Assembly (NCBI GenBank): GCA_017411385.1
Contig: JAFQQF010000015.1
Span: forward strand, 1 to 64,000
DNA from: Ruminococcus sp.
Lineage (GTDB): Bacteria; Bacillota; Clostridia; Oscillospirales; Acutalibacteraceae
Length of the DNA: 64,000 nucleotides
Direction: 5' to 3'
The first letter of the stretch is position 1; each line of letters begins with the position of its first letter. The notes beneath the pieces were generated by a model. That model searched no databases and was not told where the DNA came from. It saw only the letters and a program-made list of their open reading frames with translations. Shown here one piece after another: positions 5,134-60,388 of the stretch. Position numbers and translations under genes: made by a program.

Positions 5134-7209
5134 ATGTCAAATCTTGTAATCGTTGAGTCGCCGGCTAAGGCAAAAACGATAAAGAAATATCTTGGAAAAG
5201 GCTATGAAGTAGTGGCTTCAATGGGTCATGTACGCGACCTGCCTCAGGCAAGACTCAGCGTTGATATTAATAATAACTTCAATCCCAGATATGAGATTAT
5301 CAAGGGTAAAGAAAAGCTTGTGGATGAGCTTATAGCTCAGGCAAAAAAGTGCGATAAAGTATACCTCGCAACTGACCCTGACCGTGAGGGTGAGGCTATT
5401 TCGTGGCATCTTGCATACATTCTCAATCTTGACCTTGAAGATGCCAATCGCGTTGAATTCAACGAGATTACAAAATATGGTGTTGAAACAGGTATGAGCT
5501 CCCCCAGAGCCATAAACCTTGACCTTGTAAATGCACAGCAGGCAAGAAGAATTCTTGACCGCCTTGTAGGCTACAAGCTCAGTCCCTTTGTGTCTCAGAA
5601 AATCCGCCGCGGTCTTTCTGCAGGCAGAGTTCAGTCTGTAGCAGTCCGTATTATTGTTGACAGAGAAAATGAAATCCGTGCTTTCACTCCCGAGGAATAC
5701 TGGAGCATTGATGCAAAGTTCAATCCCAAGGGAAGCCGCAAAGTGTTCTCAGCATTTCTTTACGGCAATGCTGACGGCAAAATTGAGATTTCTAATAAAG
5801 AGCAGGCAGATAAAATACTTTCAGACCTTGAGGGTGCTGAATACACAGTAACTAAGGTTAAATCCGGCACAAGAAAGAAATCACCTGCACCTCCTTTTAT
5901 TACTTCTACACTTCAGCAGGAGGCTTCTCGTAAGCTTGGTTATCAGTCAAGACGTACAATGCGAATTGCACAGGAGCTTTACGAAGGTATCGACATCGAA
6001 GGAATCGGCCCCACCGGTCTTATTACTTATATGAGAACAGACTCCCTGCGTATTTCTACAGATGCTATGAATGAGGCTGCTTCATATATCAGAAACACCT
6101 TCGGCGACAATTATCTTCCTGCAAAACCCAGATACTTCAAATCCCGTTCAAATGCACAGGACGGACACGAGGCAATCAGACCTACATCCATTAACCTTAC
6201 TCCTGAAAGGGTAAAGGCTAATCTTACTACCGATCAGTATAAGCTCTATAAGCTTATCTGGGAGCGTTTTACTGCTTCACAGATGGCTGATTGCATTCAG
6301 AAGACAACACAGATTGATATCGAGGCTAACGGATATGTTTTCAAAGCTAACGGTTATCGTGTGGACTTTGATGGATTTACACAGCTTTACGTTGAGTCTA
6401 AGGATGAGGAAGAGGCAAAGGAAAGCTCACTGCCTCCCGTTGAAAAGGGTATGCCATTGAAACTCAAAGAGCTTTTGGGCAACCAGCACTTCACTCAGCC
6501 TCCTTCAAGATTTACAGAAGCATCTCTTATCAAGGCTCTTGAAGAATTCGGCATTGGCAGACCTTCCACTTATGCGGCTACAATTTCTACTATTGTTAAC
6601 CGTGAATATGTAAAGCGTGTAGGCAAGCTTCTCCATCCAACAGAGCTTGGTGAGGCAATGTCACAGCTTATGAAGGAACGCTTCCCAAAAATTGTAAATG
6701 TTAAATTTACGGCTCAGATGGAGCAGGATCTTGACACAGTTGAAAGCGGTAATGTTGAGTGGAGAGAGCTTTTAGGCGATTTTTACGCTGATTTTGAAAA
6801 GAACCTTAAAAAGGCGAAGGCAGATATGGAGGGCGTAAAAATACAGCTCAAGGAAGACGAAACCGACATTGTTTGCGAAAAATGCGGTCGTAAGATGGTT
6901 ATCAAAGTGGGTAGATTCGGCAAGTTTATTGCTTGCCCGGGATACCCCGAGTGTAAAAATGTTAAGAAGTACACTGAGAATATCGGTGTGAACTGTCCTG
7001 TTTGCGGTGCAGATGTAATTGTCCGCAAGACAAAGACAGGCAAGACCTTCTACGGCTGTGCTTCCTACCCCAACTGTAACTTTATGTCATGGAATGAGCC
7101 AACATCTGAGAAATGTCCTCAGTGCGGCGAAATCCTCTTCAAGAAAAAAGGCAAAAAGCCCACTCTGTACTGTGCTAAGGACGGATGCGGCTACGAGAAA
7201 AAACAATGA
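5134..7209 (+). CDS. topA: DNA topoisomerase I
   Basis: This type IA topoisomerase relaxes negative supercoils behind RNA polymerase and replication forks. The 691 residues start with the TOPRIM domain (LVIVESPAKAKTIKKYLG, then ATDPDREGEAISWHL with the acidic metal ligands). The catalytic tyrosine lies in TGLITYMRTDSLRIS near residue 300. Three four-cysteine zinc modules follow (CEKCGRKM.., CPVCGADV.., CPQCGEIL..). The GGAGGT site is good. The stop codon overlaps the trmFO start. Confidence 0.97.
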   Translation: MSNLVIVESPAKAKTIKKYLGKGYEVVASMGHVRDLPQARLSVDINNNFNPRYEIIKGKEKLVDELIAQAKKCDKVYLATDPDREGEAISWHLAYILNLDLEDANRVEFNEITKYGVETGMSSPRAINLDLVNAQQARRILDRLVGYKLSPFVSQKIRRGLSAGRVQSVAVRIIVDRENEIRAFTPEEYWSIDAKFNPKGSRKVFSAFLYGNADGKIEISNKEQADKILSDLEGAEYTVTKVKSGTRKKSPAPPFITSTLQQEASRKLGYQSRRTMRIAQELYEGIDIEGIGPTGLITYMRTDSLRISTDAMNEAASYIRNTFGDNYLPAKPRYFKSRSNAQDGHEAIRPTSINLTPERVKANLTTDQYKLYKLIWERFTASQMADCIQKTTQIDIEANGYVFKANGYRVDFDGFTQLYVESKDEEEAKESSLPPVEKGMPLKLKELLGNQHFTQPPSRFTEASLIKALEEFGIGRPSTYAATISTIVNREYVKRVGKLLHPTELGEAMSQLMKERFPKIVNVKFTAQMEQDLDTVESGNVEWRELLGDFYADFEKNLKKAKADMEGVKIQLKEDETDIVCEKCGRKMVIKVGRFGKFIACPGYPECKNVKKYTENIGVNCPVCGADVIVRKTKTGKTFYGCASYPNCNFMSWNEPTSEKCPQCGEILFKKKGKKPTLYCAKDGCGYEKKQ

Positions 7210-8534
7210 TAAGTACTTATGTTAATGTGGTTGGTGCAGGACTTGCAGGATGCGAAGCAGCATATCAGCTTGCAAAGCGCGGCATATCTGTTCGCCTTTA
7301 TGAGATGAAGCCTTCTAAAAAAACTCCTGCACACCATACAGATAAATTCGCTGAGCTTGTATGCTCAAATTCCTTGAAGGCTCAGCGTACATCATCAGCA
7401 GCAGGACTTCTAAAAGAAGAGATGCGCAGGCTTGACTCACTTCTGCTCAGATGTGCAGATAAATGCACAGTTCCGGCAGGAGGTGCCTTGGCAGTTGACA
7501 GAGATATTTTTGCTTCTCTTGTTACTGATGAAATCCGTTCAATGAGTAATATTGAGATTGTTTCAGAGGAAGTTTTGACTATCCCTGCAGATGCTCCTAC
7601 GATTATTGCCACAGGACCTTTAACTTCAGACTCTTTGTGCGAGGATATCATTGCACTAATGGGTACTTCGCTTTCATTCTTTGATGCGGCAGCACCTATT
7701 GTAACCGCAGAGAGCATCGACCCGGAAACCTCCTTTGCTCAGTCCAGATACGATAAAGGTGACGGTGATGATTATATCAACTGTCCCTTAAATAAAGAAG
7801 AATACGAGCTGTTCTACAAGGAGCTTGTAAATGCCGAGCGTGCACCTCTTCATGATTTTGATGTTTCAGACCCTAAGGTTTACGAAGGCTGTATGCCTAT
7901 TGAGGTTATGGCGCAAAGAGGCGAGGATACAATTCGATTCGGCCCTATGAAGCCTGTTGGACTTCGCGATCCCAGAACAGGTCATCGCCCTTGGGCTTGC
8001 CTACAGCTTCGCCGTGAAAATGCAGAGGGCTCAATGTATAACCTTGTAGGCTTTCAGACTAACCTTAAATTTCCTGAGCAGAAGAGAGTTTTCGGGCTTA
8101 TTCCTGCTCTTAGAAATGCCGAATTTGTACGATACGGTGTTATGCATCGCAACACATTCATTGACAGCCCTCGTGTACTCAATAGTGATTATTCAGCTAA
8201 GTACAGGGATGATCTCTTCTTTGCAGGTCAGCTCACAGGCGTTGAGGGCTATATGGAGTCTGCTTCATCAGGTCTTATGGCAGGTATTAATCTTGCATAT
8301 AAAGTATTAGGAAGAGATACCCTTACACTTCCTGCCGACACAATGATTGGTGCTCTGTCAAGGTATATAACAGATGAATCGGTTGTAAAATTTCAGCCCA
8401 TGGGTGCAAGCTTTGGTCTTTTGCCCGAACTTGAAAATCGTTCAAGAGATAAAAAAATCCGCGGTGAGCAGTATGCACAGCGTGCACTGTCTTCACTTGA
8501 AAACTTCAAAGCAGAAAGGATGATTAAGGTATGA
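7206..8534 (+). CDS. trmFO: Methylenetetrahydrofolate-tRNA-(uracil-5-)-methyltransferase TrmFO
   Basis: This FAD- and folate-dependent enzyme makes m5U54 in the T-loop of tRNA. The 442-residue protein starts at ATG 7206, overlapping the topA stop as ATGA. An N-terminal dinucleotide-binding motif, VVGAGLAGCEAAYQLAKRG, begins within 10 residues of that start. Further family signatures are FAELVCSNSLKA, PRTGHRPWACLQLRRENAEG and FAGQLTGVEGYMESASSG. topA-trmFO adjacency is common in Firmicutes. Confidence 0.96.
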   Translation: MISTYVNVVGAGLAGCEAAYQLAKRGISVRLYEMKPSKKTPAHHTDKFAELVCSNSLKAQRTSSAAGLLKEEMRRLDSLLLRCADKCTVPAGGALAVDRDIFASLVTDEIRSMSNIEIVSEEVLTIPADAPTIIATGPLTSDSLCEDIIALMGTSLSFFDAAAPIVTAESIDPETSFAQSRYDKGDGDDYINCPLNKEEYELFYKELVNAERAPLHDFDVSDPKVYEGCMPIEVMAQRGEDTIRFGPMKPVGLRDPRTGHRPWACLQLRRENAEGSMYNLVGFQTNLKFPEQKRVFGLIPALRNAEFVRYGVMHRNTFIDSPRVLNSDYSAKYRDDLFFAGQLTGVEGYMESASSGLMAGINLAYKVLGRDTLTLPADTMIGALSRYITDESVVKFQPMGASFGLLPELENRSRDKKIRGEQYAQRALSSLENFKAERMIKV

Positions 8535-9532
8535 GAATTATCGTAGATGCTTTTGGCGGAGATAACGCTCCCTTAGATATAATCAAAGGAAGTGCTGATG
8601 CCATAAAAGAACTTGGTGTAGACATTACACTGACAGGTGACGAAAATACAATCAAAAGAGTTTGTTCTGAGCAGGGGATAGATGCCGAGCAATTCACTAT
8701 TGTTCACGCTGACTCTGTTATAAGTCAGAACGAAGCCGGAACAGAAATTATGAAATCCAAGGCTGATTGCTCTATGGCTGTGGGCTTAAGACTTCTTGCC
8801 GCTGGTGAGGGCGATGCGTTCATTTCAGCAGGCAACAGCGGTGCCGTCTGTGTAGGAGCAACTCTCATCGTAAAGCGTATCAAAGGAATATCACGTCCCG
8901 GCTTTGCTCCAATAATTCCGGGTGTAAAGGGTCACTTTATGCTTATGGACAGTGGTGCTAATCTTCAGTGCAGACCCGAGATGCTCCGTCAGTTCGGTAT
9001 TATGGGTTCTGTTTATATGAACAAAGTAATAGGTGTAGAAAACCCAAGAGTCGGACTTGCAAATGTCGGTACAGAGGAGCACAAGGGTACAGAAATTCAA
9101 CAGGAGGCTTATGCTCTTTTGCAGAAGGCACCCGTGAACTTCATCGGTAATGTAGAAGGAAGAGATGTTCCTAACGATGTCTGTGACGTTCTTGTGTGTG
9201 ACGGTTTTACAGGTAACCTTATCCTCAAAACCTATGAGGGTGTTGCAATAGCCCTGATGAAGAAAATCAAGGGCATATTTATCAAGAATCTTAAGAATAA
9301 AATTGCAGCCGCATTGGTTATGAAGGATGTAAAGGGACTGAAAAAGCAGTTTGATTACAGCGAGCACGGCGGCGCACCTATCCTTGGTGTTAAAAAACCT
9401 GTGTTTAAGGCACACGGTAACGCAGACGCGGTTACCTTTAAGAATGCTATAAAGCTCACGGTTCAGTATGTGGAGCGTAATGTTATAGGTGAGATTTCAG
9501 ATGCACTCGAAAAAATCAAGACAGAGGATTGA
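8531..9532 (+). CDS. plsX: Phosphate acyltransferase PlsX
   Basis: PlsX converts acyl-ACP and phosphate to acyl-phosphate, the acyl donor for PlsY in phospholipid synthesis. The 333 residues begin MRIIVDAFGGDNAPLDIIKG and contain the conserved SAGNSGAV and VCDGFTGNLILKT segments. It overlaps the trmFO stop by ATGA and runs straight into rnc. The acpP gene often found between plsX and rnc is absent. It is probably membrane-associated, as in Bacillus. Confidence 0.96.
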   Translation: MRIIVDAFGGDNAPLDIIKGSADAIKELGVDITLTGDENTIKRVCSEQGIDAEQFTIVHADSVISQNEAGTEIMKSKADCSMAVGLRLLAAGEGDAFISAGNSGAVCVGATLIVKRIKGISRPGFAPIIPGVKGHFMLMDSGANLQCRPEMLRQFGIMGSVYMNKVIGVENPRVGLANVGTEEHKGTEIQQEAYALLQKAPVNFIGNVEGRDVPNDVCDVLVCDGFTGNLILKTYEGVAIALMKKIKGIFIKNLKNKIAAALVMKDVKGLKKQFDYSEHGGAPILGVKKPVFKAHGNADAVTFKNAIKLTVQYVERNVIGEISDALEKIKTED

Positions 9533-9537
9533 TGATT

Positions 9538-10212
9538 ATGACCGAACTTCAGCATAAAATCGGATATGAGTTCAAGGATATATCTCTGCTTTCAACAGCG
9601 CTCACTCATTCCTCGTATTCAAATGAGGTTGGAAAAAGCATTAAATGCAACGAAAGAATGGAGTTTTTAGGCGATTCAGTCCTTTCTTTGGTTGTTACCA
9701 ATTACATATATATGAACTTTACTCAGTTTCCCGAAGGAGATTTAACCCAGCTTCGCGCATCCCTTGTTTGTGAAAAATCTCTTTTCAAATTTGCAAAGCT
9801 TATTGATTTGGGTAAGTATATTAAACTCAGCCGTGGCGAACGACACGGAGGAGGAGCAGAAAGACCGTCAATTCTTTCCGATGCCTTTGAAGCTTTGATA
9901 GCGGCAATCTATCTTGACGGCGGTTACGAAGAAGCACGCAAATTTGTGATGGTGTTTATTGAACCCGAGGTTAAGAGCATCCGCAAGAAACCCCAGAAGG
10001 ATTACAAAACAACCTTGCAGGAGATAGTTCAGAAAAACCCGGGAGAAAAATTAGAATACCGCCTTGTAAGCGAGAGCGGTCCCGACCACAACAAACACTT
10101 TGTTTCTGAGGTTCTCCTTAATTCTAACTCCATCGGTAAGGGTGGCGGCAGAAGCAAAAAGGAAGCTGAACAGCAGGCGGCGCGTGCGGCATTGGAGTTG
10201 ATGGGCTATTAA
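9538..10212 (+). CDS. rnc: Ribonuclease III
   Basis: This double-strand-specific endoribonuclease processes rRNA precursors and structured mRNAs. The N-terminal nuclease domain contains the signature NERMEFLGDSVLSLVV with acidic catalytic residues. A C-terminal double-stranded RNA-binding domain (GPDHNKHFVSEVLLN to SKKEAEQQAARAAL) follows. I favour ATG 9538 (224 residues) because AGAGGA at 9523-9528 is 9 nt upstream. ATG 9532, overlapping the plsX stop, is the alternative. The TAA stop is embedded in ATTAA, where the next gene appears to begin. Confidence 0.95.
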   Translation: MTELQHKIGYEFKDISLLSTALTHSSYSNEVGKSIKCNERMEFLGDSVLSLVVTNYIYMNFTQFPEGDLTQLRASLVCEKSLFKFAKLIDLGKYIKLSRGERHGGGAERPSILSDAFEALIAAIYLDGGYEEARKFVMVFIEPEVKSIRKKPQKDYKTTLQEIVQKNPGEKLEYRLVSESGPDHNKHFVSEVLLNSNSIGKGGGRSKKEAEQQAARAALELMGY

Positions 10213-11206
10213 ACGCTCTAATGTTTCTATATTTGTTCCCTTTGCAGGCTGTCCGAACAGATGTAGCTTCTGTGACCAGCACAGAATCACAGGTGTGATA
10301 AAACCTACAACTGCAGAAGATGTAAGAGTTGCTGTTGCGACAGCTCTTTCCTCGGGTGGGATAGATTCTTCTCAATCAGAGATTGCGTTTTTTGGCGGTA
10401 GTTTTACAGCTGTTGACAGGGAATATATGATTTCACTGTTACAGGCTGCAAACGAATATATTGATGAATTCAAAGGAATCAGAATATCTACAAGACCTGA
10501 TTGTATAGATGAAGAAATTCTAACAGTACTCAAAGCATATAACGTCACTTCCATCGAGCTTGGTGCTCAGTCTATGAGTGATAAGGTGCTTGAGCTTAAT
10601 ACGAGAGGTCACAATAGTGATTGCGTAAGAAAAGCATCGTCACTTATAAAATCATTTGGCTTTTCTTTGGGACTTCAGATGATGACAGGTCTTTACGGGA
10701 GCTCAGAAGAACTTGATTTATATACTGCTGATGAGTTTATAAAGCTGTGTCCTCAGACTGTTCGTATTTATCCTACAGTAGTTCTTGAAGGCACAAAGCT
10801 TGCTGAGTATTTCCTAAGCGGTGTGTACACACCTCATACCACAGACTCGGCTGTAAAACTTTGTTCAAAGCTTATTCCAATGTTTGAAAATTCAGGAATC
10901 AAAGTAATAAGAGTTGGACTTCACAGTAGTGATACAATGGAAAACAGTATTATAGCAGGTGCGTATCACCCTGCATTCAGAGAATTATGTGACAATACAA
11001 TGTTCTTTGATAGAATTATAGAGTCGATTAATAATAATCATATTGCTCGCGGTGAGATTGTAATTAAAGTATCACCAAAGAGTGTTTCCAAGGTGATTGG
11101 ACAAAAAAAGAAAAACCTGATTGTTTTGGAGGAGATGGGATATAAGCCCTCTGTTGTTTCAGACAACAGTCTTTCACAGCGTCAGATAATAGTACAGGAA
11201 GGCTGA
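10208..11206 (+). CDS. Radical SAM protein (Elp3-like fold), apparent ATT start
   Basis: The product reads KRSNVSIFVPFAGCPNRCSFC after its first codon. It carries the three-cysteine radical SAM cluster motif (CPNRCSFC near residues 15-22) at the family's usual place. Further on are the SIELGAQSM region and a basic C-terminus. An in-frame TGA at 10199-10201 bars any start further upstream. No ATG, GTG or TTG occurs before the cysteines, so ATT 10208 is the only reasonable start. GGAG at 10194-10197 is well placed. The GTG at 10295 would remove the iron-sulfur motif. Homologues sit between rnc and smc in many Clostridia. The substrate is unknown, but similarity to tRNA-modifying Elp3-type proteins is likely. 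Confidence 0.82.
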   Translation: MKRSNVSIFVPFAGCPNRCSFCDQHRITGVIKPTTAEDVRVAVATALSSGGIDSSQSEIAFFGGSFTAVDREYMISLLQAANEYIDEFKGIRISTRPDCIDEEILTVLKAYNVTSIELGAQSMSDKVLELNTRGHNSDCVRKASSLIKSFGFSLGLQMMTGLYGSSEELDLYTADEFIKLCPQTVRIYPTVVLEGTKLAEYFLSGVYTPHTTDSAVKLCSKLIPMFENSGIKVIRVGLHSSDTMENSIIAGAYHPAFRELCDNTMFFDRIIESINNNHIARGEIVIKVSPKSVSKVIGQKKKNLIVLEEMGYKPSVVSDNSLSQRQIIVQEG

Positions 11207-11210
11207 ATTT

Positions 11211-14200
11211 ATGCTCCTTAAATCCTTAGAGCTTCAAGGCTTCAAAACTTTTCCCGATAAAACTAAATTAACTTTTAACACAGGTATTACCGCTGTTGTC
11301 GGTCCTAACGGCTCTGGCAAGAGTAACATCAGTGATGCCATTCGTTGGGTACTCGGTGAGCAGGCTCCCAAGAGCCTGCGTTGTTCCCGTATGGAGGATG
11401 TTGTTTTCAACGGTACCACTGGCAGAAAACAGCAAGGCTTCGCTGAGGTTACGCTCACTATCGACAACGCAGACAGAGCTTTGCGTTATGATGGGGATGT
11501 TGTGTCTGTTACACGCCGATTCTATCGTAGCGGCGAAAGTGAATACCTGATTAATAAAACTCAGGTGCGACTCAAAGACATAAACGAATTGTTTATGGAC
11601 ACAGGTCTTGGCAGAGATGGTTATTCTATGATTGGTCAGGGCAAAATCGACTCAATCGTATCATCTAAAAGCGACGACAGACGTGAAATTTTTGAGGAAG
11701 CCGCAGGAATTTCCAGATACAGATACAGAAAAATCGAGGCGGAACGTAAGCTTTCCCGCACCGAGGAAAACTTAGTTCGTCTACGCGATATTGTTTCTGA
11801 GCTTGAAAGCCGAATCGGTCCTTTGAAATCACAAGCAAAAAAAGCGCAAAGCTTCCTTGAGTATTCGGGTGAAAAGAGGGGACTTGAAATTGCCCTTTGG
11901 CTTGATACTTTGAACAAGTCATCAGGGGTTATCAGGGAATACGAGGATAAAATCGCTATTTGCGAAAATCAGTGTGCAGACGCAGACAAGATTCTTTCCG
12001 AAATTTCTGAGAAGACAGATTCTCTGTATGCAGAGCGCGGTCAGATGGCTGTGCTCTTAGAACAGCTTCGAAACCTTATTTCAGAGTGTGAAGCAGAAAT
12101 TTCTGAGAAACGTTCGGATATCTCTGTTGCGAATAACGATATACTTCATAACAATGAGAATATAAGCCGTATTCGTCAGAATTTACAGCAAATAGACGAG
12201 CAGGCTTTAGACATACAAAAAGAAATTGCTTACAAGCTGGGCTCTATCGAAAATATTAAGAAATCCATTGCTTTAAAGCAAAAAGAGTATGATGAGATTG
12301 CGGATGCTCTCAACAACATCAACGTTGATGCAAGCAGAAGCTCAGACACTCTGCAGGAGATTACAGCCTCAGTAGCGACACTCAGTGCTAAGCAGGCAGA
12401 TGCAAGAGTAACTCTTATGACCGGAGCATCATCCGTTGCAGAACTTGAAAGCCGAATTGCGGTGCTTTCTGATAATAAGCAGAAAAAGCAGGAACAGCTT
12501 TCAACTCTTTCCGAGATGCTTACAAATTACAAATCACAGCTCGAAAAAACACAGAAAACCATAACTCAGCTTACAAATTCAATAAAAGGTCTGGAAATGA
12601 AGCTTTCTTCTAAAGAAGAAAGACTTGCTCAGCTTAGAGATACTGCAGACAAGCTTTTGCTTGATGCAGGAGAAAAAGCAAGACGAGCCAAGGTTCTTCA
12701 GGACTTGGAACAGAATATGGATGGATTCAGCCAGCCAGTAAAAGCAGTTATGCAGGGTTCCAAGGCAGGTGCAGTCAAGGGAATACGCGGTCCCGTTTCA
12801 AGAGTTATCTCTGTGCCTTCAGAATATGCAGTTGCAATAGAAACCGCACTCGGTTATGCAATGCAGAATATTATCACAGCCACAGAGGAAGATGCAAAGC
12901 GTGCTATTTCCTATTTGAAACAGCACAACGCGGGCAGAGCTACTTTCCTGCCTGTGAACACAATTAAGGGTAAAAAGCTTGCCGAACAGGGACTGGATGA
13001 TTGCTACGGCTTTGTTGGTATAGCTGCCGAGCTTTGCTCTTGTGAAGAACAGTATAATCAGATTCTTCTCTCTCTTCTTGGCAGAATAGCTGTGTTTGAA
13101 GACTTAAACAGTGCAACCACAGCGGCTAAAAAGTTCGGATACAAATTCAAGGTTGTTACCCTTGATGGTCAGGTAGTAAACGCAGGCGGTTCACTTACAG
13201 GCGGTTCCTTTGCAAAAAATTCCGGTATTCTCAGCCGTTCTTCTGAGATAGCACGGATTCGACAGGAAGCAGACGAGCTAATGAAAAAAGCCGAAGCCGC
13301 AAAAGCAGACTATGCTAATGCACAGAGCGAAACTGCCTCAATAGAAGCAGAGCTTCTAGGTTATCGTGCTGACCTTTCAAAGGCTTCTCAGGAGCTTGTA
13401 CGACTTGAAGCTGAGTCAAAGGCTTGTGAAAATGAGCACTCAGGAACAGAGCTGTCTATTACAGAAATTGATACTGAGCTTAACACCTGCAGTACAAGAA
13501 TAGTTAATCTCAAAAACGAAATGGAACAGGCTCAGCTTGTTATATCTCAGTTTACAGAAGAAATCGCTTCTCTTGAGGAACGTGCCGCAGAAATCAGCGG
13601 CAGCCGTATGAGTTTGAAGGAAAAAAGAGAGGAATTCTCCTCAAAGCTTCAACAGCTCAGACTTGAGATTGTCACACTTGAAAAGGATATTGAGAATCTC
13701 ACCTCAGATATAAATACTGCTAAGGCACTCGAAAACAATCAAGAAGCACATAAGAACGAGCTTTTGAGTGAGATTGATGCCATTGAAAAAACAAACACCT
13801 TCATTACAGAGCGAATTACTTTGCTTGAAAATGAGGTTAAAGCTCTGGAAGAAAAGATTTCCTGCGCAAAATCAGATATTGAGAAATCTTCACTCCGTCG
13901 TGACGAGATTGAAGCTGAGTCAATCCGCTTAAGACAGCTTGAAAAAGACAAAATGTCTGAGCGTGAAACTGCATCCTCCGAGCTTGCAAGGCTTCAGGAG
14001 AGAAAGCTCAATATGCAGAGTAAGTATGATTCAATTATTCAAAAGCTCTGGGATGAATATGAGCTTACACGTCTTGAGGCTGATGCACATGCGGCTGAAA
14101 TTGAGGATATTAACGAAGCATCACGCAGACTTACTGAGCTTAAACAGAAAATCAAAGCTCTTGGTTCAGTTAACGTAGGTGCTATAGAGGAATACAAGGA

Positions 14201-53790: not shown

Positions 53791-54771
53791 TTATGAATCT
53801 TTTTTTATATTTGCAAGTGGATTTGATTTTGCTGCATCTTCTTTTTGCTTAGTGTTTAAGTGTGTGTATATTTGAGTTGTACCCAAGTTTGCGTGTCCCA
53901 GTATATCCTGTAGCACCAACACATCTACATTACCATGCTGATACATAAGCGTTGCCGCTGTGTGCCTCAGCTTATGACAAGAATAGCCTTGGGAATCTAA
54001 GCCGATTCTTTCCAAATATTTATATACGAGTTTCTGAACCGTAACAGGACTCATTCTTTTAGCCTGATTGCTGATAAAAAGTGCTTTTCTGTCCTTAAGA
54101 CCATCTACAGGACGGACCTTGAGATAATCATTTATAGCGTTTATGCAGGCATCGTTTAGGTACACAATACGTTCTTTATTGCCTTTGCCGAGCACTCGTA
54201 TGTAATTGTCAGGGCTGATGTCAGTCACATTTAGTCCAACCAATTCGGATAATCTCAACCCGCAATTAAGAAACAGAGTAAGAATACAATAATCTCGTTC
54301 TTTGTGTTTGCCTTCTACTGCATTCAATAGTTGAATTGATTGGTCTAATGTAAGAAATTTAGGTTTTTGCTTAACTTGCTGTGGTGTTTCAAGGTCTTTT
54401 AAAGGGTTTTCATCGAGTACTTGTTTTTTTACGCAAAGATAATTAAAGAAACCGCGCAGGGCAGAGGTCTTTCTGAGCCTCGTAGAACTGTTATTACCAC
54501 GCTCATCAGTGAGATACAACATAAAGTCGTATGCATCGCTTAAGGTAACAGAACGAATTAAATCAAGGTTAACGTCGTCAATAGGGATTTCATCAAATGG
54601 TATATCTGAAGAAACTAAACCTCTGTGAGTTTTCAGAAATCTAAAAAAAGTACGAATATCTATATAGTATTCTTCAATGGTTTTTTCAGATTTCGCCTTT
54701 ATAACTCGCAGGTGAATCAGATAATCGCGAACCAGTGGCGGTGCACCGTCTTTATAATTTTTCGACAGCAT
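53791..54771 (-). CDS. Xer-like tyrosine recombinase
   Basis: This 326-residue recombinase has a SAM-like core-binding domain (about 10-120) and a catalytic domain. The catalytic set is complete: Arg173 (CGLRLSELVGL), Lys196 or Lys199 (GKGNKERIV), His266 and Arg269 (CHKLRHTAAT), His293 (LGHANLGTTQ) and Tyr302 (IYTHLN). The protein looks like the conserved chromosomal XerC/D/S type rather than a phage integrase. AAGGAG precedes the ATG. A dif-like palindrome lies 82 nt upstream of its start, recalling the xerS-difSL arrangement of streptococci. Its role in dimer resolution is inferred. Confidence 0.88.
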   Translation of the reverse strand: MLSKNYKDGAPPLVRDYLIHLRVIKAKSEKTIEEYYIDIRTFFRFLKTHRGLVSSDIPFDEIPIDDVNLDLIRSVTLSDAYDFMLYLTDERGNNSSTRLRKTSALRGFFNYLCVKKQVLDENPLKDLETPQQVKQKPKFLTLDQSIQLLNAVEGKHKERDYCILTLFLNCGLRLSELVGLNVTDISPDNYIRVLGKGNKERIVYLNDACINAINDYLKVRPVDGLKDRKALFISNQAKRMSPVTVQKLVYKYLERIGLDSQGYSCHKLRHTAATLMYQHGNVDVLVLQDILGHANLGTTQIYTHLNTKQKEDAAKSNPLANIKKDS

Positions 54772-54852: not shown

Positions 54853-54889
54853 AAAATTACACAAAATGAAAATAGTTTTGTGTAATTTT
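54853..54889. repeat. Left palindromic repeat, dif-like arms with 9-nt centre
   Basis: AAAATTACACAAAA (54853-54866) pairs with TTTTGTGTAATTTT (54876-54889), 14 bp perfect, around the centre TGAAAATAG. Sixteen bases of it (54855-54870) recur exactly at 57739-57754. A half-site, TACACAAAATGA, lies at 54947-54958. It is probably the left boundary (attL-like) of the element. Confidence 0.75.
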
Positions 54890-54961
54890 GCGGAGGGCAT
54901 AAGTTGCGGAGAATACTGGTGGATCTGCTTTCGGCTGTGCAGAAAGTACACAAAATGAGAG

Positions 54962-55022
54962 GGCACAAAAAGGGTGCAAGGGTGCTTGCACTTGTCTTGC
55001 CCTTGCACCTCTTTTTTGTGCC
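54962..55022. repeat. Long stem-loop inside the left end of the element
   Basis: Arms 54962-54982 and 55000-55022 pair over about 20 positions (GGCACAAAAA ... and GGTGCAAGGG with their complements), with a small internal mismatch and a 17-nt loop. The T-rich 3' arm could terminate transcription entering from the right or left. Confidence 0.6.
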
Positions 55023-55590
55023 TTATATGCTTTTTAAAAGGTGTGCTCTGCACACCCTTGCCAACCTAAAAGCAAACCTCTAAAACAAACCTTTCGGCTG
55101 ACAAACCCCCGAGGGGCGAGGAACGCGCCCCCCGAAGGTGGCACCCGAAGGGTGCCACCGTAGAGCCCCGAGGGGGCGAGCGAAGAAGGGTAGGGCACCA
55201 AAGGTGCCCCGAGGCTGGGGGGCACCGCGACGGGCACAAACCGAAAAAAATGCAAGGGTGCCCTTTGGGCACTTGCGAAGCCCTTGCATTTTGTTGAGGT
55301 TTTGTGCAACCGCGAGGAGTGGGCGGGAGCCCCGACGAGGAGCGGGGGGCTGCCGAGCCGTACGGAGCGAGAGGAGCAGGCACGGTGCCCGCAAAGCGGG
55401 CAGGCACGCGACCAACGGAAGCTGTGCCAGATGCAACTGCGACGACAACCGAGATTAGTGAGGGAGTAGCGAGCGAGCTTGCGAGTCCGCGTTAGGACCG
55501 AACAGGCACTTTTGCGAACTGGGGGCTTTGCTCCCCACTGAGCAAAGTGCTCCTATGCAACGTGTCCTCTCTCTGCAAGGTTTCTTTTGT
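55023..55590. other. GC-rich non-coding block of short triloop hairpins
   Basis: This 570-nt stretch is far more GC-rich than anything else in the window. It holds many tiny perfect hairpins, mostly built on GGGCACC/GGTGCCC. Arms and loops are: 55040-55046 with 55050-55056 (loop TCT); 55137-55146 with 55150-55159 (GAA); 55193-55199 with 55203-55209 (AAA); 55258-55263 with 55267-55272 (TTT), nested inside 55249-55258 with 55281-55290; and 55387-55392 with 55396-55401 (AAA). A GCACTTTTGC/GCAAAGTGC stem lies near 55505-55550. Open frames exist on both strands, but they overlap one another and match nothing recognisable, so I read this as structured DNA or RNA. Confidence 0.7.
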
Positions 55591-55592
55591 GA

Positions 55593-55676
55593 GTGCTGTG
55601 TTTTTCCGATTGGGGAGTGGGGGTTTGAATGGGTGCACCCTAAAACCCCCACCCACAGCGGAAAACACAACAGCAC
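55593..55676. repeat. Large two-tier stem-loop upstream of rep
   Basis: The outer arms are GTGCTG (55593-55598) and CAGCAC (55671-55676), continuing imperfectly through TTTTCCG and CGGAAAA. The inner arm is GTGGGGGTTT (55617-55626) with AAACCCCCAC (55643-55652). The apex holds the palindrome GGGTGCACCC (55631-55640). Placed 96 nt before the Rep start, it is a candidate double-strand origin or Rep nick region. Confidence 0.6.
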
Positions 55677-55771
55677 AGAAACAGGGGGAGTGCTCGGCTT
55701 TGGGTTTCCTCTCTCTGATAGGTTTTTGGGAAAATCTCTACTTGATATAACGGACATTATTCCGTCAAATA

Positions 55772-56644
55772 ATGAATAATCTATTACACATCAATGCTCG
55801 GGAAGGACTCTGCAACTGCAGAATTAAGCTCTACCCTGATGAGGGTGGAGCCTGGGTTCCCGTTGAAATGATGATTTCGGAAAGGAAGATTTTTAACCCC
55901 TCGGGGTTGGAGTCTGAGGGTTGGAAGAGTTTTGAAAAATATGATGATAATTCCCGCGTGGAAACTGACATTAAATCGTCACAATCAACTTCAGATAGAG
56001 CCGTTAAGCGTGCACGTGCAAAGGTGCTCGACATTATCAGATGTAACACCGATTTCAAGTATTTCTGCACACTTACTTATAACGGGGAGTCTTTTGCAAG
56101 GGATGATTACAAGTCCGTTGTTGCATCGTTCAGTATGTGGTGTGACAATCGTGTCCGACGTAAAGGGCTTAAGTACCTTGCAGTAATTGAACGGCATAAG
56201 GATAAAAAGGGATTACACTTTCATGTGCTTTGTAATGATGTGCTTAAACTGGTTGATAGTGGGACTGTTAAAGTGCCCGATAGAAAGAAACCTATAAAGG
56301 TTACTACTGCTGATAGGTACAAAGTACCTGAAGCAGATAGAAAGACGGTCTATAATATATCTGACTGGTGTTATGGCTTTAGTACTGCTATTGAGATTAC
56401 TGGTGATGCAGGTCTTGTAAAAGTTTCTGCATATCTGCAGAAGTATCTTACAAAGGAGAGTGAGAAAGTCGGTGGCAGGTGGTATTACTCAGGTGGAGTT
56501 CTCCTTCGCCCTGTTTATCGTTATTGTGACAACGATTATTATTCTGCAGATTATGATTACCAAATAGATATCCCTGGCAATTCTCTGCGTGTTCTTCGCT
56601 TTGAAAATGGCTCTCACGAATTTTTAGGCAAAACTCTGAGTTGA
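55772..56644 (+). CDS. HUH-type rolling-circle replication initiator (ORF2/G2P-like)
   Basis: The 290-residue protein shows the three HUH Rep motifs in order. Motif I is FCTLTYN (98-104), the HUH motif is HFH within GLHFHVLCN (149-151), and a two-tyrosine motif is AYLQKYLTKE (Tyr221 and Tyr225). This set and the ERHKDKKGLHFH context resemble filamentous-phage and related Rep proteins that nick one strand to begin rolling-circle replication. No helicase domain is present. The first ATG has no clear ribosome site. A small hairpin, ACGGA/TCCGT (55750-55765), lies just before it. ATG 55867 is an alternative start that keeps all motifs. A terminator follows the gene. Confidence 0.8.
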   Translation: MNNLLHINAREGLCNCRIKLYPDEGGAWVPVEMMISERKIFNPSGLESEGWKSFEKYDDNSRVETDIKSSQSTSDRAVKRARAKVLDIIRCNTDFKYFCTLTYNGESFARDDYKSVVASFSMWCDNRVRRKGLKYLAVIERHKDKKGLHFHVLCNDVLKLVDSGTVKVPDRKKPIKVTTADRYKVPEADRKTVYNISDWCYGFSTAIEITGDAGLVKVSAYLQKYLTKESEKVGGRWYYSGGVLLRPVYRYCDNDYYSADYDYQIDIPGNSLRVLRFENGSHEFLGKTLS

Positions 56645-56684
56645 CATATTCTGGAATGTAAAATCGCAATACAGGCAAAATATA

Positions 56685-56711
56685 AGGCAGTCTACTCAGA
56701 CTGCCTTTTTT
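56685..56711 (+). terminator. Terminator of rep
   Basis: AGGCAGTCT (56685-56693) pairs with AGACTGCCT (56698-56706) with a 4-nt loop and a T-run to 56711. The promoter of the next gene begins immediately after it. Confidence 0.88.
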
Positions 56712-56712
56712 G

Positions 56713-56721
56713 TGCTATAAT
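56713..56721 (+). promoter_or_regulatory. Extended -10 promoter of the element recombinase
   Basis: TGCTATAAT (56713-56721) is a perfect extended -10. No -35 is recognisable because the rep terminator occupies that position. The expected transcription start (about 56728-56730) coincides with the ATG at 56730, so the mRNA may be leaderless. Confidence 0.6.
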
Positions 56722-56729
56722 TGAAGTGT

Positions 56730-57332
56730 ATGAAAACTGATTATATTAAACCGAGCATATACAAGAAAATATACCAAGTTATGGAGTACGAGAACGCTTT
56801 AGCTCTGAGGGTTTCTCTTGAAACAGGACTCAGAATAGGGGATGTGCTTGCACTGACTCCTGCAGACTTGGTAGGAAATACAATAAAGTACACAGCACAG
56901 AAAACAGGAAAAAAGGGCAAAAAGGTAATTTCTGCTGAGCTTTCTAAGAGATTACGACAGATTTCCAGTAAAAAGTTTATTTTCCCAGGTCGTTTTGGTG
57001 ATAAACCGCGAACACGGCAAACTGTATGGAAAGATGTTAAGAAGGCAACAAAGCACTTGAAGATAACCGACAATGTGGGTTGTCATTCTGCAAGGAAAAC
57101 TTATGCTGTGGACTTGTTCCATGAAAAAGGTTTGCCCGAGGTTCAGAAAGAATTACAGCACGACAGAATGGATACAACAATGATTTATGCATTTTCTGAT
57201 ATGCTGTCCAATAATCGTGACTCTGCTCCTGGGAACCTGGATTATGACTTGCTTTCTGAAATGATAGCCGACCGAGTATACAGAAGATTGTTACCTTTGT
57301 TCGAACAATGTTCGATTGACAAAAGTAAATAG
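56730..57332 (+). CDS. Minimal tyrosine recombinase (catalytic domain only)
   Basis: The product from ATG 56730 is 200 residues. It has the recombinase catalytic set: Arg35 (TGLRIGDVL), a lysine in the beta-hairpin (TAQKTGKKGKK), His119 and Arg122 (HSARKTYAVDL), His144 (LQHDRMDTT) and Tyr153 (IYAF). The usual N-terminal core-binding domain is missing. The protein instead has about 45 residues after the tyrosine. Family relatives integrate or excise mobile DNA, and here it probably acts on the flanking palindromes. No ribosome site precedes the ATG, which fits a leaderless message. Confidence 0.85.
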   Translation: MKTDYIKPSIYKKIYQVMEYENALALRVSLETGLRIGDVLALTPADLVGNTIKYTAQKTGKKGKKVISAELSKRLRQISSKKFIFPGRFGDKPRTRQTVWKDVKKATKHLKITDNVGCHSARKTYAVDLFHEKGLPEVQKELQHDRMDTTMIYAFSDMLSNNRDSAPGNLDYDLLSEMIADRVYRRLLPLFEQCSIDKSK

Positions 57333-57420
57333 CCGTGGTATTTTGGAGAAGAAAGGAGGAACAGGAACAACGGCTTACACACAATCGGTGTCCGCGGGCC
57401 CCTTTTGGGGCGGTGGGGCA

Positions 57421-57548
57421 AAAAGAAAAGCACCGCATTACTGCAGTGCTTTCCTGTGCGAAATGTGGCTTGTCGTCGGCACAGATACATTATATCTCTG
57501 AGCGACACGGCAATACTGACAAGCTATGTATACAATCGTATACCCTCT
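57421..57548 (-). ncRNA. Putative structured small RNA of the element
   Basis: Between a consensus minus-strand promoter and a minus-strand terminator lies a sequence of about 125 nt with no convincing reading frame but clear pairing. GCTTGTC (57468-57474) pairs with GACAAGC (57518-57524), GTCG (57475-57478) with CGAC (57503-57506), and 57480-57487 with 57493-57500 (one mismatch). Near the 5' end GTATAC (57538-57543) pairs with GTATAC (57528-57533). The 3' end is the stem 57427-57433 with 57446-57452, followed by TTTTCTTTTT on the minus strand. It may be a copy-number or regulatory RNA, but no known family was recognised. Confidence 0.7.
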
Positions 57549-57554
57549 GTGTTT

Positions 57555-57583
57555 ATTATAATGCCGTTGTCTGATTATGTCAA
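57555..57583 (-). promoter_or_regulatory. Consensus promoter driving the small RNA
   Basis: On the minus strand a perfect TTGACA (57583-57578) and a perfect TATAAT (57560-57555) are separated by 17 bp. It matches the strongest promoters in the window. Confidence 0.85.
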
Positions 57584-57619
57584 GTAGTAGCAACTAACCG
57601 CATACGCGTAGCGAAAATA

Positions 57620-57639
57620 CACAAAACGGTCATTTTGTG
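57620..57639. repeat. Internal palindrome of the flanking-repeat family
   Basis: CACAAAA (57620-57626), CGGTCA, then TTTTGTG (57633-57639). The arms and 6-nt centre length match the right flanking repeat, but the outer arm bases and the centre differ. It may be an accessory recombinase or Rep binding site. Confidence 0.55.
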
Positions 57640-57695
57640 AGGAGCGGTGCTTTCGGTTACAGATGTTGTGAATAGCGGGGAACACACCGCACCGA

Positions 57696-57744
57696 GTAAT
57701 TACCACACCACATAGGTGTATTTTTTTGATAGTGTGGTAATTAC
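57696..57744. repeat. 13-bp inverted repeat overlapping the right dif-like site
   Basis: GTAATTACCACAC (57696-57708) is the perfect complement of GTGTGGTAATTAC (57732-57744). The right arm shares bases with the dif-like palindrome, so the two hairpins are mutually exclusive in single-stranded form. Confidence 0.7.
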
Positions 57745-57767
57745 ACAAAATGAATATTTTGTGTAAT
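57740..57767. repeat. Right dif-like site, 11-6-11 palindrome
   Basis: ATTACACAAAA (57740-57750), then TGAATA, then TTTTGTGTAAT (57757-57767). This is a 28-bp site with two 11-bp arms and a 6-bp centre, the geometry of bacterial dif. The centre differs from the E. coli dif centre TGTATA at one base, and the right arm shares TT-TGT with dif XerD arms. The flanking base on each side extends the palindrome to 12 bp. It is the probable right boundary of the element. Confidence 0.65.
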
Positions 57768-57768
57768 T

Positions 57769-58044: not shown

Positions 58045-58245
58045 ATGAAGCATTTGTATTGTTTACGGTTAAAGCAACTAAGAGCTATACATTCTTACAC
58101 ACAGTCCGATATTGCATATATACTTTGTATACGTCAAGAACAATACTCCAGATATGAATCAGGTGCTCGTGAGCTTCCTCTTCATCTGCTTATAAAGCTA
58201 TGTAAAATTTACAAGGTGTCCTCTGATTATATATTAGGATTATAG
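58045..58245 (+). CDS. Small XRE-family helix-turn-helix regulator
   Basis: The 66-residue protein is a single HTH domain. LRLKQLRAIHSYTQSDIAYIL carries the first helices, IRQEQYSRYESGARELPLHLL the recognition helix and following turn, and KICKIYKVSSDYILGL-like residues end the fold (here KLCKIYKVSSDYILGL). It has no ligand or dimerisation domain. It lies just outside the right dif-like repeat. It could be a cargo remnant of a related element or an independent regulator, and the target is unknown. A terminator follows. Confidence 0.8.
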   Translation: MKHLYCLRLKQLRAIHSYTQSDIAYILCIRQEQYSRYESGARELPLHLLIKLCKIYKVSSDYILGL

Positions 58246-58335: not shown

Positions 58336-59043
58336 TTATCGCAATAATACAAATCCGCCTATATCTTTTAGTTCAGAATCACCTAGGCAAACATATTTCA
58401 TATTGTGATTTGCTAAGAAATTGATTATCTCTAATGAATCTTTGTGTTTTGATATATCTCCGAAAAAATATACAGTATCATTAATAACACCGCTGCATCC
58501 ACCGATAAATCCGTATTCTGCCCCTTCAAGCTGAATGTCCCCTGACGAAATCCTAAGTGCCTCTATTCCCTGTTTTAACGCTGTGTCATATATTGTGGGA
58601 TCTGCAGTAATAATCGCATTATCATTTAATATAAGTGTTGAACATTTTGTATAGCCTTGATTCACGTTGATAATATCTAAATTCTCTGTTTTAGTGTAGT
58701 CCATTATTTTATTGTCAAGAGCTGAACTTTTACAGAACAATCTGTTGCCGATTAATGCAATGTTCAACGAAACATTATGCGGATAAACCTTTGATAATGA
58801 GCTACAAACCACAACATCATATCCGCATTCAGTTAATTTGTTTTCAATGCTTCTGCAGCACTCAGGAATAAAAGCTTTATTTTTGATTATACACAGCTGC
58901 ATATCAGCGTGTTGCCTTTCGTTTTCACGCAAATGCAGCAAATTTAAGCTTGGTAGAACCTCAATGCTTTCGGACTTTAATGCTTTGCATAAATCATCAT
59001 CCCAAGCCATATATACTAGGTGTTTTTCTTTATGTAAGTGCAT
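58336..59043 (-). CDS. DUF6873-like GME-fold protein of unknown function
   Basis: This 235-residue protein appears to belong to an uncharacterised family with a guanidino-modifying-enzyme (pentein) type fold. That assignment rests on remembered family naming and on the GGCSGVI and ITADPTIYDTAL segments, so it is tentative. An EGAEYGFIGGCSGVIND stretch near residue 185 and a paired Cys late in the protein could be active-site parts. ATG 59043 follows GAGG and overlaps the end of radA, so the two are co-expressed. No substrate is suggested. Confidence 0.6.
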   Translation of the reverse strand: MHLHKEKHLVYMAWDDDLCKALKSESIEVLPSLNLLHLRENERQHADMQLCIIKNKAFIPECCRSIENKLTECGYDVVVCSSLSKVYPHNVSLNIALIGNRLFCKSSALDNKIMDYTKTENLDIINVNQGYTKCSTLILNDNAIITADPTIYDTALKQGIEALRISSGDIQLEGAEYGFIGGCSGVINDTVYFFGDISKHKDSLEIINFLANHNMKYVCLGDSELKDIGGFVLLR

Positions 59044-60388
59044 CGAAAGCCTCACGAATGTTTTTTACACCAATTATCTGAACATCATCAGGCGTCTTGA
59101 TGTTTTTAAGATTATTGTAAGGAATAATTATTCTGTTAAAACCAAGTCGTGAAGCTTCGTTAATCCTCTCTTGTGCGTGAGATACGCTTCTGATTTCACC
59201 TGCAAGTCCGATTTCACCGAAAGCAATTGCGTTATCTGCTATCGCCACATCCTTTAAGCTTGATACAAGTGCCATCGCAACTGCTAAATCTGTTGCAGGC
59301 TCATCAAGCCGTAATCCACCGATAACATTTATATAAACATCTGAGTTAGAAAAATAGTAGCCTGCACGTTTTTCAAGAACCGCAACAATAAGCGACATAC
59401 GGCTGTAATCAAAGCCTGTTGCCATTCTTCTGGGAGTACCGAATGCTGATGCGGAAACTAGTCCTTGTACCTCTGCCAATATCGGGCGTGTGCCTTCCAT
59501 TGTGCATGCAACACAGGTGCCTGATACATTCTTTGGTCTGCCGGAAAGAAGCATCATTGAAGGGTTCTGCACCTCTTCAAGTCCGCTTTCTGACATTTGA
59601 AAAACACCGATTTCGTTTGTAGAACCGAATCTGTTTTTTACCGCACGCAGTATTCTGTACGACATCTGTTTATCGCCTTCAAAATACAGCACAGCATCCA
59701 CTATGTGTTCAAGTACTTTAGGACCGGCAATTGATCCCTCTTTGTTAACATGTCCTACAATAAACATCGGTATATCAAGGCTTTTTGCAACTCTCATAAG
59801 GAAATTTGTGCATTCTCTGACTTGAGTTACACTACCCGGAGATGAGCTTAACTCAGAAATCGACATTGTCTGTATTGAATCAATCATAACCATATCGGGC
59901 TTATCTTCTCTGATAACTTCTGCCACTACCTGCGCGTCAGTTTCAGTAAGAACCATAAGATTATCATTTTCAGCATCAAGCCTTGCTGCACGAAGTTTAA
60001 GCTGGCGCTTAGATTCTTCACCTGATACATACAGAATTTTCATTTCAGCTGTGAGCTGTCTGCATATCTGCAGAAGTATTGTAGATTTACCTATACCCGG
60101 GTCACCGCCAAGTAGTATAAGACTTCCCTTAACAATACCGCCGCCCAAAACTCTGTCTAATTCAGATATTCCTGTAACGTATCTGTGTTCGTCGGTAGTG
60201 GAAATTTCTGTGATACTGACAGGCTTGGTGTAAACTGCCTGCCTTTTAAGTGCTGAGGGTGTATCTGTTTTGCTTACGACTTCTTCATTCATTGTGTTCC
60301 AGTTACCGCAGGAGGGGCACTTTCCGTACCATTTTGGTGACTCATATCCACAGTCAGAGCAGATATACACACTTTTGATTTTAGCCAT
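59030..60388 (-). CDS. radA: DNA repair protein RadA (Sms)
   Basis: This RecA-like helicase acts in recombination and branch migration. The 452 residues start at ATG 60388 with AGGA upstream. The N-terminal zinc finger is CSDCGYESPKWYGKCPSC. Walker A GGDPGIGKSTILLQ, the KNRFGSTNEIGVF RadA motif and a C-terminal Lon-protease-like domain (GGLRLDEPATDLAVAMALVSS) follow. An in-frame start 135 nt upstream would overlap the preceding gene's tail and lacks support. It lies between cwlD and a DUF6873-like gene. Confidence 0.95.
   Translation of the reverse strand: MAKIKSVYICSDCGYESPKWYGKCPSCGNWNTMNEEVVSKTDTPSALKRQAVYTKPVSITEISTTDEHRYVTGISELDRVLGGGIVKGSLILLGGDPGIGKSTILLQICRQLTAEMKILYVSGEESKRQLKLRAARLDAENDNLMVLTETDAQVVAEVIREDKPDMVMIDSIQTMSISELSSSPGSVTQVRECTNFLMRVAKSLDIPMFIVGHVNKEGSIAGPKVLEHIVDAVLYFEGDKQMSYRILRAVKNRFGSTNEIGVFQMSESGLEEVQNPSMMLLSGRPKNVSGTCVACTMEGTRPILAEVQGLVSASAFGTPRRMATGFDYSRMSLIVAVLEKRAGYYFSNSDVYINVIGGLRLDEPATDLAVAMALVSSLKDVAIADNAIAFGEIGLAGEIRSVSHAQERINEASRLGFNRIIIPYNNLKNIKTPDDVQIIGVKNIREAFDALT

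What the first reader, a model, noticed from the sequence alone, without database searches (positions are those of the whole stretch)
54855..57768. Compact HUH-Rep plus tyrosine-recombinase element bounded by dif-like repeats
Two genes (HUH Rep and a catalytic-domain-only recombinase), a structured small RNA and a GC-rich hairpin block sit in about 2.9 kb between near-identical palindromes. Elements that integrate at dif and encode HUH Reps are known from Gram-negative filamentous phages and their satellites. A Clostridial version with its own minimal recombinase and no structural genes would be unusual and may be undescribed.
Basis: partly seen in the sequence, partly recalled or inferred. 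Interest (0 to 1): 0.82.

Follow-up and report, generated by a model that had tools for sequence, protein, structure and literature searches.

The report
Tiny mobile element in chromosome dif
A 2.9-kb two-gene mobile element of gut Clostridia sits in the site where the bacterium unlinks its sister chromosomes, and its ends look as if it entered as folded single-stranded DNA, much as the cholera phage does; the same design recurs in many related species.

Summary
A 2.9-kb insert (54855-57768) carries an HUH Rep (PF23343) and a 200-aa tyrosine recombinase with only the catalytic domain. It lies in a conserved palindrome beside a core xer gene. That palindrome occurs once per genome in 71 of 161 congeners and lies opposite dnaA in one complete genome, so it is very probably dif. 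Three relatives lack the insert; the joined window flanks align to them with no break at the join. A GTDB scan gave 62 loci with related recombinases; three exact tandem arrays and three circular-looking contigs were seen. The anatomy follows CTXphi/VGJphi rules: the site 5' of rep usually has a longer spacer, the site 3' of int is an intact dif, and the two spacers share their first 2 or more bases in 23 of 24 elements. In 24 of 25 elements attP folds in silico with a second site into one hairpin (0 of 100 with shuffled flanks). Best reading: a rolling-circle element entering dif as folded ssDNA by one strand exchange, using host Xer, its own mini-recombinase, or both. Shown: target, empty sites, recurrence, polarity. 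Inferred: ssDNA substrate, enzyme, transfer. No coat or Zot gene was recognised. My literature searches found no earlier report.

The parts
53791..54771 (-). Host xer gene (326 aa), neighbour of the dif site; not part of the element
   Evidence: Strong match (E 2.4e-91 or better) in 78 of 100 drawn congeners; PF00589 and XerC/XerA-like NCBIfam models below their cut-offs
54855..54887 (+). 5' boundary site: dif-type arms with 9-nt spacer TGAAAATAG (attP-type spacer)
   Evidence: same position and longer spacer in most related elements
54888..55737 (+). GC-rich leader with hairpins, probably replication/priming region (function inferred)
   Evidence: GC 0.57; leader richer than the rest in 17 of 19 elements
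54947..54955 (+). Extra dif half-site TACACAAAA 60 nt right of attP
55738..55767 (+). Conserved CTACTTGATATAACGGACATTATTCCGTCA block; candidate Rep nick site (CTTGATA 55741-55747)
   Evidence: CTTGATA upstream of rep in 32 of 48 loci scanned (31 as TACTTGATA) vs 2.8% of shuffles; likeness to the phiX174/pC194 nick site is recalled
55772..56644 (+). rep: HUH rolling-circle initiator (HFH motif; conserved Y221/Y225)
   Evidence: PF23343 E 7.9e-13; H149, H151, Y221, K224 invariant in 11 aligned Reps
56684..56711 (+). Terminator-like hairpin plus T run between rep and int
   Evidence: seen by eye; no scan run
56730..57332 (+). int: catalytic-domain-only tyrosine recombinase, 200 aa
   Evidence: PF00589 E 2.7e-19; R34, K60, H118, R121, H143, Y152 invariant in 55 aligned homologues
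57615..57644 (+). Second, imperfect dif-like site (attP2-like), partner of attP in the predicted ssDNA hairpin
57739..57768 (+). 3' boundary: intact dif (6-nt spacer TGAATA), as in empty relatives
58045..58245 (+). HTH gene outside the element: chromosomal flank
   Evidence: 80% identical beside the empty sites L093 and L094

Best explanation
This is an integrated rolling-circle mobile element that uses the host's dif/Xer site. Proposed cycle: Rep nicks the conserved CTTGATA motif and makes circular single-stranded DNA of the rep-sense strand. attP and a nearby second dif-like site pair on that strand into one hairpin that imitates a duplex dif with a mismatched centre. Host Xer, with or replaced by the element's mini-recombinase, cuts both partners 3' of the shared left arm and exchanges one strand, helped by the shared first bases of the spacer; host replication completes the insertion. 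The product has an attP-type site 5' of rep and an intact dif 3' of int, so the host keeps a dif and further copies can stack. Shown by sequence: dif target, junction, many insertions, polarity, spacer rule, predicted fold, tandem and circular-looking forms. Inferred: ssDNA substrate, which enzyme cuts, nicking at CTTGATA, transfer between cells.
For: Target: xer core; site once per genome in 71 of 161 congeners, 0 in the reversed control; 50.2% of the circle from dnaA in G264. Junction: flanks joined after the left arm align to L093 (95.3%, 85 nt), L094 (89.7%, 87 nt), L092 (82.9%, 82 nt) with no break at the join. Rule: attP and dif spacers share 2 or more first bases in 23 of 24; the orientation used fits better in 23, tied in 1; attP spacer longer in 21, equal in 3. 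Polarity: intact dif 3' of int in 36 of 40 loci, 5' in 1 (L153, rearranged int), none under the strict definition in 3. Fold: two-site hairpin 24 of 25; shuffled flanks 0 of 100; empty dif with natural flanks 1 of 54 strand readings. Tandem arrays and a circular-looking contig identical over 140 nt to the element end in G268. CTXphi attP1/attP2 anatomy from PMC3089051 (passages).
Against: All evidence is sequence only. Swapping in flanks of other elements still gave 10 of 60 two-site folds, and the fold persists at the integrated 3' site in 6 of 23 and at the 5' site in 10 of 23; the complementary strand folds two-site in 19 of 23, so the fold does not choose the strand. Complementarity beyond the arms is better than in mismatched pairs in only 5 of 25 elements and not in the window. 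Circular-looking contigs could come from tandem arrays. The 24 and 25 element sets contain only elements whose two left arms matched. A Zot-bearing prophage at a dif of this type follows the prefix rule without the fold and without int.
Confidence: 0.72

Rival explanations
1. VGJphi-like route: the element integrates as a double-stranded circle by one strand exchange at a single dif-like attP; the second site is an accessory binding site and the hairpin is a by-product of dif-like repeats.
For: VGJphi has one dif-like attP with a 7-nt centre and homology on the XerC side only (PMC3089051 and PMC4246890, passages). In the window attP is itself a perfect duplex palindrome. The G034 prophage shows the prefix rule without a two-site fold.
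Against: Both arms of attP pair with a second site in 24 of 25 elements against 0 of 100 shuffles, and host-specific half-sites cluster near attP (33 vs 2.2 expected, 21 of 23 elements). Polarity always follows the rep strand where it could be judged, which a duplex route does not predict.
Confidence: 0.2
2. The mini-recombinase alone is a dedicated integrase that has captured dif as its target; host Xer plays no part.
For: Int is kept with all six catalytic residues in 55 aligned homologues and is co-oriented with rep in 47 of 47 loci where both were found.
Against: It lacks the domain that clamps core DNA in Xer-type enzymes; attP left arms track each host's own dif even where dif differs, as expected if host Xer binds it; the G034 prophage at a dif of this type has no such int.
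Confidence: 0.15
3. It is a decayed inovirus prophage or a fixed chromosomal remnant.
For: Rep is related to gut inovirus initiators; Int matches in G445 contain stops, so some copies decay.
Against: The same two-gene plan recurs in many genera at 30-67% Int identity to the window with catalytic residues kept; exact tandem copies and circular-looking contigs; three relatives have clean empty sites.
Confidence: 0.03

Closest known systems
CTXphi attP(+) integration, Vibrio cholerae
   Same: Two dif-like sites near each other, extended centre in attP1, shared first bases with dif, predicted ssDNA hairpin, one new dif left after insertion (PMC3089051, PMC4246890: passages)
   Different: Host has one xer beside dif; element is 2.9 kb, lacks phage genes and encodes a mini-recombinase; ssDNA route inferred only
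VGJphi and TLCphi-type IMEX
   Same: dif-mimicking attP; TLCphi also lacks virion genes (PMC4246890, passages)
   Different: They are described as using XerC/XerD without an own recombinase; a second site is not reported for VGJphi
Legionella LME-1 at dif/XerL
   Same: Mobile element at the dif of a single-recombinase system, one intact and one modified site (PMC9765430, passages)
   Different: Its att is 22 bp of identical dif sequence; no folded attP is mentioned in the passages I saw
xerS/difSL and xerH/difH single-recombinase modules
   Same: One xer gene next to its dif (PMC5357621, passages)
   Different: Here the host protein scores best to XerC and archaeal XerA models and the dif has 12-bp arms with a 6-nt centre
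Gut inoviruses (bajarodino, Dulem viruses)
   Same: Related Rep (23 phage records, 27-37% identity in the rows listed)
   Different: The one record opened (PQ006119) has Zot and is 8.8 kb

Membership tests
[quoted passage not shown]
[quoted passage not shown]
   circles L095 and L105
[quoted passage not shown]
   needs an assay
[quoted passage not shown]
   int 56730-57332
CTXphi-type ssDNA integration | Two dif-like sites that pair on one strand | tested here: met
   24 of 25 elements incl. the window, in silico; controls
CTXphi-type ssDNA integration | Homology to dif only next to one cleavage point | tested here: met
   mean shared prefix 3.0, suffix 0.6 nt
CTXphi-type ssDNA integration | ssDNA is the substrate | not testable with these tools
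   needs an assay
Inoviridae | Zot/pI assembly ATPase | tested here: not met
   no Zot in the own genome or among 61 extra element ORFs
Inoviridae | Coat proteins | tested here: inconclusive
   none recognised, but such small proteins are often missed by profiles, as in L090
Xer-type simple tyrosine recombinases | Core-binding plus catalytic domain | tested here: not met
   only the catalytic domain aligns; 166-223 aa in 54 homologues

The most novel reading that the evidence does not exclude
An undescribed, order-wide group of two-gene rolling-circle elements has arrived at the CTXphi trick in Firmicutes and added a dedicated mini-recombinase: a catalytic-domain-only enzyme that works on the folded single-stranded attP, perhaps on its degenerate arm in a mixed synapse with host Xer. 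The attP hairpin plus mini-Int is the constant module; the Rep is exchangeable (G2P-type or Rep_1).
Probability: 0.4. Interest if true: 0.88.

Novelty: new variant of a known kind. Interest (0 to 1): 0.8.

Why it matters
It would extend ssDNA-type integration at dif, known in detail from Vibrio phages, to a large group of gut Clostridia with xer beside dif, in a very small integrating replicon. It supplies a candidate dif for a whole genus. The natural set of attP/dif pairs lets rules of strand exchange be read from sequence (spacer prefix goes with orientation; a second pairing site is retained). The mini-recombinase raises the question of how a tyrosine recombinase works without its DNA-clamping domain.

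Tried and rejected
Structured small RNA: no Rfam gathering match; three sub-threshold matches treated as chance. HTH at 58045 as the element's RstR-like repressor: rejected, it is chromosomal. Full inovirus: rejected for lack of Zot. Viral contigs: a scan with the single Rep confirmed 0 of 3 stretches; the Int alignment gave 3 loci, the Rep alignment 10; only presence of int, rep, xer and CAAAA-type sites was checked in these, plus the nick motif in L160 and L161. Complementarity beyond the arms as a general rule: not supported, 5 of 25.

Rows dropped or replaced. The automatic end search chose wrong places in some loci: for L100 (same locus as L082) and L096 (same as L078) I used the sites; 5' candidates in L141 and L144 and the GC-rich palindromes of L136 were not used; L147 is in the spacer count (24) but not in the folds (23 elements plus circles L095 and L105). 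The attP of L124 was not located. Loci without both ends, many cut by contig ends, are in neither set, so these counts are selected for matching left arms. Loci L101, L107 and L157 were left out of the nick-motif count because rep lies within 150 nt of the contig start; one of the 32 hits (L124) is CTTGATA without the wider block. L156 (Dysgonomonas, E 4e-4) is probably no relative. L153 looked like an exception to polarity; its int matches lie in pieces on both strands, so I call it rearranged.

Structure prediction could not be run. Literature: (all ten searches); none lists a paper on such elements in Clostridia. The library is open-access PMC only; no supplement was read; six papers were seen in passages, none in full.
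Full report
What is there. The window belongs to a 2,105,440-bp, 62-contig, 93%-complete genome. Between 54855 and 57768 lie, in order: a palindrome with a 9-nt spacer, a GC-rich leader, a conserved CTTGATA block, rep, a terminator-like hairpin (by eye), int, a second imperfect dif-like site and a palindrome with a 6-nt spacer. Rep is an HUH initiator (PF23343, E 7.9e-13) and Int a catalytic-domain-only tyrosine recombinase (PF00589, E 2.7e-19).

The target is very probably dif. Of 100 congeners drawn, 78 have a strong match to the flanking xer (E 2.4e-91 or better), 15 only a weak match to some recombinase and 7 none; of the 50 that are at least 90% complete, 47 have the strong match. The palindrome stands upstream of xer: 54 strand readings, about 27 sites, in 32 locus entries, three of which are second fetches of the same genomes. 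A strict form of the site occurs in 71 of 161 congeners, once in each, and in none with the reversed pattern; the other 90 were not examined one by one. In the one-contig genome G264 (2,440,231 bp) it lies 1,224,488 bp from dnaA, 50.2% of the circle. In G298 xer lies about 1.04 Mb from dnaA in about 2.4 Mb, which is less exact.

The insert is an insertion. L092, L093 and L094 have xer, dif, DUF6873 and radA in the same order without it. The window flanks, joined after the left arm, align to them with no break at the join: 82.9% over 82 nt, 95.3% over 85 nt (one gap elsewhere) and 89.7% over 87 nt.

The group. Strong Int matches (E below 1e-50) occur in 7 of 161 congeners and the same 7 have strong Rep matches; an eighth genome, G201, has only a weak one. 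G268 shows the left end of an element at a contig edge. In an order-wide draw 14 of 394 genomes have Int matches with E below 1e-20; most of the 212 with E 0.001 or better look like ordinary recombinases. The GTDB scan gave 62 loci. In 47 of 62 both G2P-type Rep and Int were found by profile, co-oriented in all 47; in 15 no such Rep was found, some being cut by contig ends, and two (L113, L148) carry a Rep_1 initiator instead. Int homologues measure 166-223 aa (54 loci, some starts guessed), are 30-67% identical to the window's and keep R, K, H, R, H and Y in 55 of 55. The 26 elements or circles measured span 2.4-4.4 kb, median 3.2 kb. Of 61 further or alternative ORFs scanned, the informative family matches were Reps, one sigma-70 region 4 and one HTH; no coat, Zot or relaxase.

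A rule for the ends. Read in the direction of rep, the 5' site has the attP spacer and the 3' site the host dif spacer. In 24 elements with both ends the attP spacer is longer in 21 and equal in 3. The first 2 or more bases agree with dif in 23. Agreement is better with the orientation used than with the opposite one in 23, tied in 1 and never worse. Shuffling attP among elements never reached the observed mean (0 of 20,000). An intact dif was found 3' of int in 36 of 40 loci, 5' in 1 (L153, rearranged) and under the strict definition not at all in 3. The left arm of attP follows the local dif even where that differs, for example ACTTGCACAAAA, AACGCAACAAAA or AATTCGGCATAA.

Circles and arrays. 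L083 (same contig as L105), L095 and L124 end in direct overlaps of 97, 141 and 141 nt, as circular or tandem DNA would after assembly. L095 holds one attP with the 8-nt spacer TGAAAATG, and the element end in G268 is identical to it over 140 nt. G276 (L078), L122 and L104 hold exact tandem copies.

A folded attachment site. Extra dif half-sites lie within 220 nt of attP in 21 of 23 elements: 33 in all, against 2.2 by shuffling and 4.4 at the rate of the element interior. In minimum-energy DNA folds attP pairs with this second site in 24 of 25 elements (16 upstream, 8 downstream, the window included); with shuffled flanks 0 of 100 did so and 89 folded on themselves. Empty dif sites with natural flanks gave 51 self, 1 two-site and 2 mixed of 54. 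Flanks of other elements gave 10 two-site of 60. The integrated 3' site is two-site in 6 of 23 and the 5' site in 10 of 23, so integration weakens but does not always abolish the fold. The complementary strand is two-site in 19 of 23. Complementarity beyond the arms stands out in only 5 of 25 and not in the window.

Replication. CTTGATA lies upstream of rep in 32 of 48 loci, 31 of them as TACTTGATA in a conserved block, against 2.8% of shuffles. I recall the same core from phiX174 and pC194 nick sites; nicking here is inferred.

How it most likely works. CTXphi has an attP1 with a 12-nt centre and an attP2 with a 6-7-nt centre; attP1 shares its first bases with dif; the two pair on ssDNA, XerC exchanges one strand, and one functional dif plus two non-functional sites remain (PMC3089051 and PMC4246890, passages). 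These features have counterparts here. I therefore think that the element enters as folded rep-sense ssDNA; the duplex VGJphi route is the main rival. A Zot-bearing prophage at a dif of this type in G034 (6,927 bp between its sites; no mini-Int among its ORFs) shows the prefix rule but no two-site fold. That one case hints that mini-Int and the folded attP go together.

Status. It works like a CTXphi-type IMEX. I do not file it as a plain IMEX, because it encodes a recombinase and host Xer use is untested, nor as an inovirus, because it lacks Zot. An element at a single-recombinase dif has precedent in Legionella LME-1 (PMC9765430, passages). I found no report of such elements in Clostridia (open-access PMC only).

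Changes on rechecking: the xer count is now split into strong and weak matches; a claim that one rep is interrupted was removed, since the ORF is open; the decay evidence now rests on G445. The odds given here are for this mended text.

Noticed in passing
L090 (G034:C59) 5972-12928: A Zot-bearing, inovirus-like prophage of about 6.9 kb lies at a dif of this type beside xer, without a recombinase gene; its site pair obeys the spacer-prefix rule.
   Followed up: partly
L113 4942-5967; L148 4357-5652: Same Int and site plan but a pC194-type Rep_1 initiator: the Rep appears exchangeable.
   Followed up: partly
L153 5390-9164: In an isolate (Clostridium sp. D33t1) int matches lie in pieces on both strands between the two sites, suggesting an internal inversion or an assembly fault.
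   Followed up: partly
L095 and L103 (3.0-kb contigs): Element-sized contigs binned into Paludibacteraceae and Fibrobacter MAGs; probably misbinned, since L095 matches the Ruminococcus-like G268.
   Followed up: partly
L078 10025-10252, L079 2365-2616, L084 5476-5670: Short ORFs beyond int in some elements look alike by eye; function unknown.
   Followed up: no
window 58336-59055 (-): DUF6873 gene between dif and radA, kept in the empty relatives.
   Followed up: no
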